Positions 24,388-26,900 of a DNA stretch of 64,000 nucleotides are shown here, in pieces. The stretch lies in contig JANXZG010000098.1 of assembly GCA_025355645.1 (NCBI GenBank), positions 1 to 64,000 on the forward strand, written 5' to 3'. This DNA is from Gammaproteobacteria bacterium. Lineage in GTDB: Bacteria > Pseudomonadota > Gammaproteobacteria > Steroidobacterales > Steroidobacteraceae. A program made the translations under genes and the position numbers. The notes below the pieces were generated by a model. The model made no database searches. It was given only the letters and a program-made list of their open reading frames with translations, and had not been told where the DNA came from. The number at the start of each line of letters is the position of its first letter. Positions within the stretch are counted from its first letter, which is position 1.

Positions 24388-26900
24388 GTGCAGGGCCGCA
24401 AGTCGAGGCACTGCTCGGCCAGAAATACCGGCACGGGTTTGTCACCGACATTGAGTCGGACAGCCTGCCGCCGGGCCTCGACGAGAGCGTGGTCGCGGCG
24501 ATCTCACGCAAGAAGGGTGAGCCGCAGTTTCTGCTCGACTGGCGCCTGCGCGCCTATCGCCACTGGCTGACGATGAAGGAGCCGGCCTGGGCGCGCGTGC
24601 ACTACAAGCCAATCGATTACCAGGACATTTCTTATTATTCCGCGCCCAAGGCGCCGGCGAACGCGCCGAAGAGCCTTGACGAGGTCGACCCGAAACTGCT
24701 GGCGACCTATGCAAAGCTCGGTATCCCGCTGCATGAGCGGGCGCGCCTTGCGGGAGTTGCGGTCGACGCCGTCTTTGACAGCGTTTCGGTGGCGACGACC
24801 TTTAAAGACAAGCTGTCAAAGGCAGGCGTGATCTTCTGTTCATTCTCCGACGCGGTCCGCAACCATCCTGAGCTGATCCAAAAGTATCTCGGCAGCGTAG
24901 TGCCGACCGCTGACAATTTCTTCGCGGCCCTGAATTCTGCGGTTTTCTCCGACGGCTCCTTTGTATATGTTCCGCCCGGCGTACGCTGTCCGATGGAGCT
25001 TTCGACGTACTTTCGCATCAATGCGGCCAAGACCGGGCAATTCGAGCGCACGCTGATCATCGCGGCCGAGGGCGCCTCGGTCAGCTACCTGGAAGGGTGC
25101 CTGCCGGGCGACGAGGAAATTACTTACGGCGATGAGCTGCGCTCGGTCAGAGATGTTGCCATCGGCGATACGGTACTCAATTCCCTCGGCGAGGAAGCTC
25201 GGGTCGCGAAGATTATGCGTCGCGGCTATGCAGGCGAGCTTGTCGTTATTACGCCCAGAAGTCCTGCGAACCGATTCTCCGTGACCCCCGAACATCCGGT
25301 GCTGGTAATTCCCCGCCGTACCGTGCAACGTGGCACTCGCGGACCCGGTCGGCTCGCGGATTTGGATACCCGCAAGCTTTCAGCGGCAACCCCCCAGTTC
25401 ATTCCCGCAGGCGAGCTGCAGGTGGGGGATCTGCTTTGCTATCCCATCAATACGGTCGAGCGCGACGTTCCATCCATCAGCGATGATTTCCTGCGTCTGC
25501 TCGGCTATTACATTGCGAAGGGGTGTGTAACTCAATTCAATCACTGCCCCGCGGTGGAATGGTCCTTCGGAAGCCATGAGCCTGGGCTCGTGAATGACGT
25601 CGTTGCTCTCGTCGAGCGCCTGACTGGAAAGCGACCCTCGGTTTCCCACGATCGACCCAAAAACGGGGTGTGTGTCGTCACCTACAGCAAGGAGCTTTGT
25701 TACTTGATGGAGACTCATGGCGGCAAGTACGCCCATGGAAAGCGCTTCAGCAAGACCTTCATGGATCTGCCGCCAGCGCGGCAGAAGCTCGCGCTGCAAA
25801 CCTACTATTTAGGTGACGGTAGTGTCGCCAATCGCGGCAATCTGCGTGGCATCCGCGCCGTAACCGTCTCACGCCAGCTCGCCTTCCAGCTGCAGGAAGT
25901 GTGGTCACGTAACGATGTTTTCGTATTCATTCACCGGCGTGCCGCCTTTGCAGAGACAATGCGCGATGGGCGTAGCATCCGCCACCGGGAAGCCTGGGTG
26001 CTTTATCACAGCGAGGGCGCTCGCAGTCGTAGGGCTATCCGACATAACAACGTGTTTCTCGTGCCTGTGCTCAAGATCGACCGCATCCCGCATCAGGGCT
26101 ACGTGTATAACTTCGAGACCTTGTCTGAGCCGCACTCCTACCTTGTCAAGGGATTTGCAGTGCATAACTGTACGGCCCCGATGCGCGATGAGAACCAGCT
26201 GCACGCGGCAGTGGTTGAGCTCGTGGCGCTCGATGACGCGCGCATCAAGTACTCGACCGTGCAGAACTGGTACCCGGGCGATGAGAACGGGATCGGCGGT
26301 ATTTACAACTTCGTCACCAAGCGCGGCGAATGCCGTGGCCGCAACTCGAAGATCTCGTGGACCCAGGTCGAGACGGGCTCGGCGATCACCTGGAAATATC
26401 CGAGCTGTGTGCTGAAGGGCGATAACTCCGTGGGCGAGTTCTACTCGGTCGCGGTTGCCAACAATTTCCAGCAGGCCGACACCGGCACCAAGATGATCCA
26501 CATTGGCCGCAACACCCGCAGCACGATAGTCTCGAAGGGCATATCGGCGGGGCACGCCGAGAACACCTACCGTGGCCTCGTCAAGATACTGCCCGGCGCC
26601 GAGGGCGCGCGCAATTTCACGCAATGCGATTCGCTGCTGCTGGGACCGCGGTGCGCCGCGCACACCTTTCCTTACATGGAAGTGCGAAATCCGACGGCCA
26701 CGGTGGAGCATGAGGCAAGCACCTCGAAGATCGGCGAGGACCAGCTGTTTTATTGCCTGCAGCGAGGACTTAGCGCCGAGGATGCGGTCAACATGATCGT
26801 CAGCGGGTTCTGCAAGGTCGTGTTCAAGGAGCTACCGATGGAGTTTGCGGTGGAAGCACAGAACCTGCTCAGCGTCAGCCTCGAAGGGGCCGTGGGCTAA
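24384..26900 (+). CDS. sufB: Fe-S assembly scaffold SufB, interrupted by an intein
   Basis: The frame encodes 838 residues: N-extein 1-238, intein 239-595, C-extein 596-838. The joined extein is 481 residues, the normal SufB length, and reads SYLEGC-TAPMRDENQLH across the join. Family segments include CSFSDAVRNHPELIQKYLGS, YVPPGVRCPMELSTYFRIN, NWYPGDENGIGGIYNFVTKRG and GEFYSVAVANNFQQADTGTKM. SufB with SufC and SufD forms the SufBC2D scaffold that builds [Fe-S] clusters. The first C-extein residue, C596, aligns with E. coli SufB Cys254, the sulfur acceptor, so activity should depend on splicing. The frame is intact throughout. Confidence 0.97.
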   Translation: MSAGPQVEALLGQKYRHGFVTDIESDSLPPGLDESVVAAISRKKGEPQFLLDWRLRAYRHWLTMKEPAWARVHYKPIDYQDISYYSAPKAPANAPKSLDEVDPKLLATYAKLGIPLHERARLAGVAVDAVFDSVSVATTFKDKLSKAGVIFCSFSDAVRNHPELIQKYLGSVVPTADNFFAALNSAVFSDGSFVYVPPGVRCPMELSTYFRINAAKTGQFERTLIIAAEGASVSYLEGCLPGDEEITYGDELRSVRDVAIGDTVLNSLGEEARVAKIMRRGYAGELVVITPRSPANRFSVTPEHPVLVIPRRTVQRGTRGPGRLADLDTRKLSAATPQFIPAGELQVGDLLCYPINTVERDVPSISDDFLRLLGYYIAKGCVTQFNHCPAVEWSFGSHEPGLVNDVVALVERLTGKRPSVSHDRPKNGVCVVTYSKELCYLMETHGGKYAHGKRFSKTFMDLPPARQKLALQTYYLGDGSVANRGNLRGIRAVTVSRQLAFQLQEVWSRNDVFVFIHRRAAFAETMRDGRSIRHREAWVLYHSEGARSRRAIRHNNVFLVPVLKIDRIPHQGYVYNFETLSEPHSYLVKGFAVHNCTAPMRDENQLHAAVVELVALDDARIKYSTVQNWYPGDENGIGGIYNFVTKRGECRGRNSKISWTQVETGSAITWKYPSCVLKGDNSVGEFYSVAVANNFQQADTGTKMIHIGRNTRSTIVSKGISAGHAENTYRGLVKILPGAEGARNFTQCDSLLLGPRCAAHTFPYMEVRNPTATVEHEASTSKIGEDQLFYCLQRGLSAEDAVNMIVSGFCKVVFKELPMEFAVEAQNLLSVSLEGAVG
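25098..26168 (+). mobile_element. Intein with LAGLIDADG-type endonuclease domain in SufB
   Basis: 357 residues, C239 to N595 of the precursor. Block A begins CLPGDEEI with Cys1; block B is FSVTPEHPVLV with the T-x-x-H pair (T301, H304); blocks F and G are YNFETLSEPHSYLVKG and FAVHN with penultimate His594 and terminal Asn595; the +1 residue is Cys596. All splicing residues are present. Two dodecapeptide-like motifs lie between: LLGYYIAKG (372-380) and YYLGDGS (474-480). The second keeps its Asp (D478), but the first has Lys379 where Asp or Glu normally sits, so DNA cleavage may be lost. Mycobacterial SufB inteins use this same insertion site. By eye the intein has more A/T-ending codons than the exteins. 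Confidence 0.95.

What the first reader, a model, noticed from the sequence alone, without database searches (positions are those of the whole stretch)
25098..26168. Splicing-competent intein directly before the SufB sulfur-acceptor cysteine
Seen: SufB is interrupted by 357 residues with Cys1, T-x-x-H, penultimate His, terminal Asn and Cys+1. Known: the residue after the join aligns with E. coli SufB Cys254, which accepts sulfur, and mycobacterial SufB inteins use this site. Inference: because Cys+1 is both the splicing nucleophile and the catalytic thiol, oxidants or metals that modify it would block splicing, so the intein could act as a redox- or metal-sensitive switch on the main Fe-S machinery.
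Basis: partly seen in the sequence, partly recalled or inferred. Interest (0 to 1): 0.8.

Follow-up and report, generated by a model that had tools for sequence, protein, structure and literature searches.

The report
Fe-S-cysteine intein inside SufB
The gene for SufB, a core protein that builds iron-sulfur clusters, is interrupted in frame by a protein-splicing insert (an intein) placed directly before the cysteine that matches the sulfur-accepting one of E. coli; the insert is predicted to cut itself out using that same cysteine, its DNA-cutting half has likely been disabled by one changed amino acid, and its relatives sit before cysteines thought to handle sulfur or iron-sulfur clusters in unrelated proteins.

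Summary
SufB (24384-26900, +) holds an in-frame 357-residue class 1 intein at 25098-26168 with Cys1, T-x-x-H, penultimate His, terminal Asn and Cys+1; Cys+1 aligns with E. coli SufB Cys254. No second sufB was found in the 99%-complete genome.

(1) The first catalytic acid of the homing endonuclease is Lys141; 116 of 121 aligned relatives have Glu. Highly conserved sites are unchanged in the splicing part (0 of 73) and exteins (0 of 282) but changed at 3 of 59 in the endonuclease: likely a splicing-only copy. (2) Its relatives also sit in IscU and 2-oxoacid:ferredoxin oxidoreductase, always at Gly|Cys (207 of 207 clean cases), at cysteines recalled as sulfur or Fe-S sites; 30 other intein loci of the same order sit in DNA or nucleotide enzymes. 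(3) The two extein histidines tied to M. tuberculosis SufB splicing are Ser and Arg here.

The redox switch is already published for M. tuberculosis and untested here. New member of a known kind; the Fe-S pattern is the interesting part.

The parts
24384..25097 (+). SufB N-extein (238 residues, ends YLEG)
25098..26168 (+). SufB intein, 357 residues
25098..25100 (+). Cys1 codon (TGC)
   Evidence: Cys in 120 of 120 readable rows
25284..25295 (+). Block B T63-P-E-H66
   Evidence: Thr and His in 121 of 121 rows
25452..26030 (+). LAGLIDADG homing endonuclease domain (residues 119-311, bounds approximate)
25518..25520 (+). Codon AAG, Lys141, where relatives have the first catalytic Glu (block C)
   Evidence: Glu in 116 of 121; codon
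25815..25817 (+). Codon GAC, Asp240, second catalytic acid (block E), kept
   Evidence: Asp in 118 of 121; codon
26091..26168 (+). Blocks F and G (Asn338 at the usual Asp position, His346, His356, Asn357)
26169..26171 (+). Cys+1 codon (TGT), equivalent of E. coli SufB Cys254
26169..26900 (+). SufB C-extein and stop
23923..24387 (+). Rrf2-type regulator frame just upstream (named by eye, not searched)
   Evidence: translation
26915..27667 (+). sufC-like ABC ATPase frame (named by eye, not searched)
   Evidence: translation
27664..28977 (+). sufD
   Evidence: PF01458 match at 28180-28869
28761..30224 (+). sufS-like cysteine desulfurase frame (named by eye; true start unsettled)
   Evidence: translation
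30256..30615 (+). SufU/IscU-like NifU_N domain
   Evidence: PF01592, 89.9 bits

Best explanation
SufB here carries a 357-residue class 1 intein directly before the cysteine that aligns with E. coli Cys254, and the intein is predicted to splice itself out using that cysteine while its endonuclease, which has Lys in place of the first catalytic Glu, is likely dead. Inferred path: Cys1 takes the N-extein as a thioester; Cys596 attacks it; Asn357 cyclises with help from His356; Gly238 is joined to Cys596. The unspliced precursor would be inactive, because its sulfur-entry cysteine is tied up at the junction and needed for splicing, so every SufB molecule would have to pass through the intein first. 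The family is likely a homing element that still moves between lineages (patchy presence, weak match between extein and intein divergence). This copy has likely lost mobility through Lys141 and is likely kept because loss of splicing would destroy the only sufB found. Oxidant or metal control through Cys1/Cys+1, as published for M. tuberculosis, is possible but nothing in this sequence shows it.
For: Intact frame and splicing residues; join at the Cys254 equivalent; intein-endonuclease fold of a confident model; no second sufB. Lys141 where 116 of 121 aligned sequences have Glu, including the nearest relative P0003 at 91% identity; blocks C and E carry the acidic catalytic residues (passages of PMC8966425). 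Conserved columns changed: 0 of 73 splicing, 0 of 282 extein, 3 of 59 endonuclease. Patchy presence: 12 of 217 family genomes with a near-full match. Intein and extein distances correlate weakly, Spearman 0.22 over 110 precursors. Unspliced M. tuberculosis SufB does not interact with SufC and SufD (Huet 2006 as told in a passage of PMC8529194).
Against: Splicing and DNA cutting were not observed. Asn stands at the usual block F Asp, though it does so in all 207 clean relatives. Lys141 is one residue; Asp240 and the fold remain. Three changed endonuclease columns are not unusual by number (11 of 110 precursors have three or more, and P0003, with Glu141, also has three). The extein-intein correlation, though weak, exceeded all 300 permutations, so some inheritance is vertical.
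Confidence: 0.77

Rival explanations
1. Conditional splicing switch: the intein is kept because oxidants, nitrosation or thiophilic metals at Cys1/Cys596 hold SufB as inactive precursor and so tune Fe-S assembly.
For: Published for the M. tuberculosis SufB intein (passages); both cysteines are present here; splicing columns unchanged while an endonuclease catalytic residue is changed; relatives at cysteines of other Fe-S proteins.
Against: No response measured here. Patchy presence (12 of 217 family genomes) shows that relatives do without it. The extein histidines tied to M. tuberculosis splicing are Ser and Arg here. Class 1 inteins differ in redox response (passage). Cys+1 is fixed by the chemistry and by SufB anyway.
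Confidence: 0.3
2. The endonuclease still works, or nicks one strand, despite Lys141, and the element is still mobile.
For: Asp240, block D Lys215 and the fold are kept. A nearly identical copy lies in another genome bin of the genus, G021, beside an intein-free sufB.
Against: The first catalytic acid is Lys; 116 of 121 relatives keep Glu. The G021 copy sits in a block at least 13.5 kb long of 98.9% identity that reaches the contig end, more than homing of the intein alone would give, and it may be an assembly or binning mix.
Confidence: 0.12
3. Assembly error, contamination or a broken gene: the organism does not make SufB from this frame.
For: The genome is in 172 contigs with 1.94% contamination; the G021 copy is odd.
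Against: Open frame with all splicing residues; 120 listed proteins with SufB domains match the insert; 12 family genomes; no other sufB in G000.
Confidence: 0.03

Closest known systems
M. tuberculosis SufB (Pps1) intein
   Same: Same host protein; Gly|Cys join; 359 against 357 residues; block B His at 67 against 66; endonuclease present (passages of PMC8891592)
   Different: There His at -5 and -38 drive N-cleavage; here Ser and Arg. Its endonuclease is called intact in that paper; here the first catalytic acid is Lys. Its sequence was not obtained, so kinship was not measured.
SufB inteins of the window's bacterial family and other metagenome records
   Same: Same site, same length class, up to 91% identity
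   Different: Most keep both catalytic acids (114 of 121); the window does not
Inteins in IscU and in 2-oxoacid:ferredoxin oxidoreductase beta (found here)
   Same: About the same length; Gly at -1 and Cys at +1; Asn at the usual block F Asp; 32-35% identity for the archaeal oxidoreductase copies
   Different: Non-homologous hosts; many IscU copies have Asn at the block F His position (45 of 73)
PI-PkoII (2cw7) and TliVMA intein (7qsu, 7qss)
   Different: 18-23% identity, other hosts
PhoVMA intein (7qst)
   Same: Intein whose endonuclease has lost catalytic residues (passages of PMC8966425)
   Different: It lacks the active-site residues of both motifs; the window lacks one
M. smegmatis DnaB inteins as oxidative stress sensor
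   Same: Precedent for thiol-controlled splicing (passages of PMC6195587)
   Different: The responsive one is a class 3 mini-intein in a helicase P-loop

Membership tests
Class 1 intein | N-terminal Cys/Ser nucleophile | tested here: met
   Cys1
Class 1 intein | Block B T-x-x-H | tested here: met
   T63-P-E-H66, Thr and His in 121 of 121
Class 1 intein | His-Asn end followed by Cys/Ser/Thr | tested here: met
   H356-N357 | C596
Class 1 intein | HINT fold | tested here: met
   AlphaFold2 model, pLDDT 90.9; residues 1-357 match inteins
Class 1 intein | Block F Asp (usual, not defining) | tested here: not met
   Asn338, position equated by eye; Asn in all 207 clean relatives
Class 1 intein | Splicing activity | not testable with these tools
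   needs expression
Active LAGLIDADG homing endonuclease | LAGLIDADG domain | tested here: met
   PF14528 above cut-off; fold matches to I-DmoI
Active LAGLIDADG homing endonuclease | Catalytic acid in block C | tested here: not met
   Lys141; Glu in 116 of 121
Active LAGLIDADG homing endonuclease | Catalytic acid in block E | tested here: met
   Asp240; Asp in 118 of 121
SufB intein of the M. tuberculosis kind | Insertion directly before the Cys254 equivalent | tested here: met
   for the window; for M. tuberculosis only residue numbers from passages of PMC8891592
SufB intein of the M. tuberculosis kind | Sequence kinship to that intein | not tested
   its sequence was not obtained
Redox-regulated SufB intein | Splicing blocked by oxidant through Cys1/Cys+1 | not testable with these tools
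   both cysteines present; the response needs biochemistry

The most novel reading that the evidence does not exclude
The window intein is one branch of an intein lineage that specialises in sulfur and Fe-S cysteines. It has moved among non-homologous proteins (SufB, IscU, 2-oxoacid:ferredoxin oxidoreductase), each time landing between a Gly and the cysteine that takes the persulfide or binds the cluster, so that Cys+1 serves first as splicing nucleophile and then as the Fe-S thiol. Splicing then acts as a thiol-state checkpoint that licenses new Fe-S scaffolds in bacteria and archaea, and in this genome the checkpoint outlives the endonuclease. The host pattern is shown for the listed hits; the checkpoint is not shown.
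Probability: 0.3. Interest if true: 0.82.

Novelty: new member of a known kind. Interest (0 to 1): 0.5.

Why it matters
SufB inteins are known from mycobacteria and Ferroplasma (passages), and the M. tuberculosis one is read as a stress sensor. Here one in a gammaproteobacterium lacks the two extein histidines tied to M. tuberculosis splicing, has likely lost its endonuclease, and sits in the only sufB found. That makes 'parasite or regulator' testable with natural alleles that differ at the endonuclease site. The wider pattern, relatives of one intein at sulfur or Fe-S cysteines of unrelated proteins while the best-scoring other inteins of the same order sit in DNA or nucleotide enzymes, is a concrete case of host-class specialisation. 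Simple homing to a like DNA site does not obviously explain it: SufB and oxidoreductase site DNA compared shares little beyond GGN|TGY (compared by eye).

Tried and rejected
Second sufB in the genome: none found. Full ISC system as a backup: PF01592 finds the window's SufU/IscU-like gene (89.9 bits) and one weaker hit (33.2 bits) beside an IscS-like frame named by eye; HscA has no match over its cut-off (best 622.6 against 708.55 bits). Whether Suf is the only system stays unsettled, so I do not claim essentiality. Another cysteine inside the intein as the sensor: Cys143 is kept in 115 of 118 gammaproteobacterial-type SufB inteins but is Ser, Tyr or Trp in nearly all the rest of the clade. The AlphaFold2 model of the whole precursor was weak at the joins (pTM 0.52) and is not used. 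Cross-domain transfer from the archaeal MAG L049: the flanks look bacterial and only one SufB and no SufD was found there; it may be misbinned, so I make no claim. The third protein search, with the radical-SAM intein, listed mainly its own group (117 of the 120 listed carry PF04055) and did not show the edge of the Fe-S clade. Papers not held: Topilina 2015 and Novikova 2016.

Limits of the counts. One search scored only the 7996 candidates that share most words and listed 120 of 483. One search listed 120 of 248, from proteins 0.55 to 1.75 times its query's length. Searches used an intein model of 6 rows. and one search used the 110 of 121 precursors of 800 residues or more. In one search, 29 of 236 proteins (two inteins, cut ends or unclear edges) were dropped before the 207 were counted; the window itself is not among the 207. 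The tree used 64 rows: a part of the 207, the window, L049 and one very long outgroup row; the SufB side has support 84 and the IscU-plus-oxidoreductase side 91, under the 95 level, so one clade of all Fe-S hosts is not proven. Several genomes have sufB in pieces on contig ends. The control is the 30 loci given for the best matches of a Pfam model that scores the window's intein below cut-off; it describes the other inteins of the order and is not a random sample.

Full report
Observation. The frame 24384-26900 (+) encodes an 838-residue SufB precursor. Residues 239-595 (25098-26168) are a 357-residue insert that begins CLPG, ends AVHN and is followed by CTAP. NCBIfam SufB models match the two flanks. 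Aligned to E. coli SufB (PDB 5awf), the first flank ends and the second begins at residues 253/254, so Cys596 is the Cys254 equivalent. [quoted passage not shown] The residues matching Cys405, His433 and Glu434 are present in the same alignment. The genome (3.88 Mb, 172 contigs, 99.28% complete, 1.94% contamination) shows this one SufB and one SufD.

Endonuclease. Blocks C and E carry the acidic catalytic residues (passages of PMC8966425). Block E keeps Asp240. Block C reads LLGYYIAKGC, with Lys at 141 where 116 of 121 aligned sequences (120 listed hits plus the window) have Glu; the other exceptions are two Lys, one Ala and one Arg. Asp240 is kept in 118 of 121, and both acids in 114 of 121. 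The nearest relative, P0003 (91% identical over the intein), keeps Glu. Among 12 full-length SufB loci of named records (L038-L049), nine keep Glu, L038 has Lys, L040 and L042 Ala; L038 is the record behind G021. At columns at least 95% conserved among 110 precursors the window departs at 0 of 73 splicing, 0 of 282 extein and 3 of 59 endonuclease columns (L127I, E141K, G273D). By number this is not extreme: 11 of 110 precursors have three or more, and P0003 has three. The case for a dead endonuclease therefore rests mainly on Lys141 and is an inference.

Distribution and movement. Among 60 nearest genomes, 59 match SufB and 4 show the intein (G000, G021, G023, G029). In its family, 17 of 217 genomes match the intein model: 12 near-full, 2 partial, 3 only through an intein in another protein (host frames). 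In a sample of the order the count is 12 of 396: 8 near-full, 1 partial, 3 only in another protein. In class and phylum samples only the window's own genome matches (1 of 369; 1 of 398). The 17 named records with relatives are all metagenome-assembled; three listed protein names say Steroidobacteraceae (P0080, P0086, P0103). Intein and extein distances over 110 precursors correlate weakly (Spearman 0.22, above all 300 permutations); inteins are more alike than their exteins in 115 of 5995 pairs. This fits a homing element that spreads sideways with some vertical descent. G+C at third positions is lower in the intein (0.63-0.72) than in the exteins (0.77-0.82).

G021. Its contig C33 matches window 18045-31594 at 98.9% over 13.6 kb, to the contig end, and then falls to 73-79%; the same bin has an intein-free suf operon on C106 and C40. 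Recent transfer, or assembly or binning of two populations, are both possible.

The Fe-S hosts. A search with the related archaeal intein of L052, restricted to the intein, gave 248 proteins at E 1e-8; all 120 listed lie in three host families: SufB (PF01458), IscU/NifU_N (PF01592) and 2-oxoacid:ferredoxin oxidoreductase beta (PF02775) (five examples, two of them IscU and two oxidoreductase, rescanned). Pooling, 207 of 236 proteins had one clean intein: 125 in SufB, 74 in IscU (P0160, left unlabelled by the script, counted here) and 8 in the oxidoreductase; all 207 have Gly at -1 and Cys at +1. In IscU the cysteine is the one in KTFG|CGAAIAT, which aligns with residue 58 of 4eb5_C and 63 of 7c8m_A; in the oxidoreductase it is SGIG|C, residue 46 of 5b46_B. 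That these handle sulfur or bind a cluster is recalled, not a tool result. In a 64-row tree IscU (99) and oxidoreductase (99) inteins are single starred groups and gammaproteobacterial-type SufB inteins with L049 form one (100); all SufB inteins join at 84 and IscU with oxidoreductase at 91, under the starred level. As a control, the 30 loci of the best matches of the general intein model in 296 genomes of the order were scanned for hosts: dCTP deaminase-like 18, DnaB 7, DnaE 2, ribonucleotide reductase 2, UvrD 1, Fe-S protein 0. This agrees with a review that inteins favour replication, repair and recombination proteins (passages of PMC5874633).

Results against a strict Fe-S rule: some SufB proteins carry further inteins at joins followed by Ser (P0214, P0179, P0208), and the second IscU and oxidoreductase inteins belong to other intein groups. 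The rule is claimed only for the window's clade and only for listed hits.

Is it in print? Library searches for intein with IscU (6 papers) and intein with NifU (3 papers) listed nothing that by title and start of abstract is about inteins in those proteins; PMC6034842, read in passages, speaks of the SufB intein. Searches with ferredoxin oxidoreductase (5 papers) and iron-sulfur cluster assembly (9 papers) showed none either by title and abstract start, with passages read of PMC4853749 and PMC8529194. The library is partial and the primary SufB paper and a main intein survey are not held, so I say only that I did not see it.

Comparison with M. tuberculosis SufB. 359 against 357 residues, block B His 67 against 66, Gly252|Cys253 and Asn611|Cys612 (passages of PMC8891592). 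That paper ties splicing to His at -5 and -38. The window has Ser and Arg; of 117 gammaproteobacterial-type precursors scored, 117 have Ser and 116 Arg, while of 7 others 6 have His at -5 and 5 at -38. Class 1 inteins differ in redox response (passage of PMC6195587), so it cannot be carried over untested.

How it most likely works. Shown: gene structure, catalytic residues, Lys141, patchy presence, the join at Cys254, and the host pattern of listed relatives. Inferred: splicing in the cell, inactivity of the precursor, a dead endonuclease, retention because loss of splicing would destroy SufB. Open: whether thiol chemistry at the join is used as a signal. I give the splicing reading with a likely dead endonuclease 0.77 and a selected switch 0.3; they do not exclude each other.

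Verdict. What lifts it above routine is that its relatives occupy sulfur and Fe-S cysteines of unrelated proteins, which makes a shared function testable.

Noticed in passing
L066-L070 (G367, G258, G359, G300, G348): A more distant LAGLIDADG intein sits in a radical SAM enzyme (AmmeMemoRadiSam type by names) between CNLACKF and CQNW, so Cys+1 is by motif the third cysteine of CX3CX2C; G300 and G348 carry both this and the SufB intein.
   Followed up: partly
P0139, P0140, P0156, P0174: IscU proteins with two inteins: a shorter one at VGNPV|CGDIM and one of the window's clade at KTFG|CGAAIAT, that is at two of the IscU cysteines.
   Followed up: partly
L051:1744-4782 (+): Archaeal 2-oxoacid:ferredoxin oxidoreductase beta with two inteins, at KWCPG|CGDF and SGIG|CGSKT.
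   Followed up: partly
P0179, P0208, P0214: SufB proteins with a second intein at other joins (DANIG|S or AQYE|S), besides the one before CTAP.
   Followed up: no
L034 (G021:C33) and L035 (G021:C106): The G021 bin holds two suf operons, one with a near-identical intein in a 98.9% identical 13.6-kb block and one without; identity breaks at window 31594.
   Followed up: partly
L106 (G000:C102:41785-42336): The window's own genome has another intein, in a dCTP deaminase-like gene; dCTP deaminase was the host in 18 of the 30 control loci.
   Followed up: partly
L049 (JACPAO010000021.1): A MAG labelled Euryarchaeota carries a SufB intein 52% identical at the same site with bacterial-looking flanks; perhaps misbinned.
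   Followed up: partly
L065 (G326:C92:5-532): A partial SufB intein at a contig start with an in-frame TAG inside the match.
   Followed up: no
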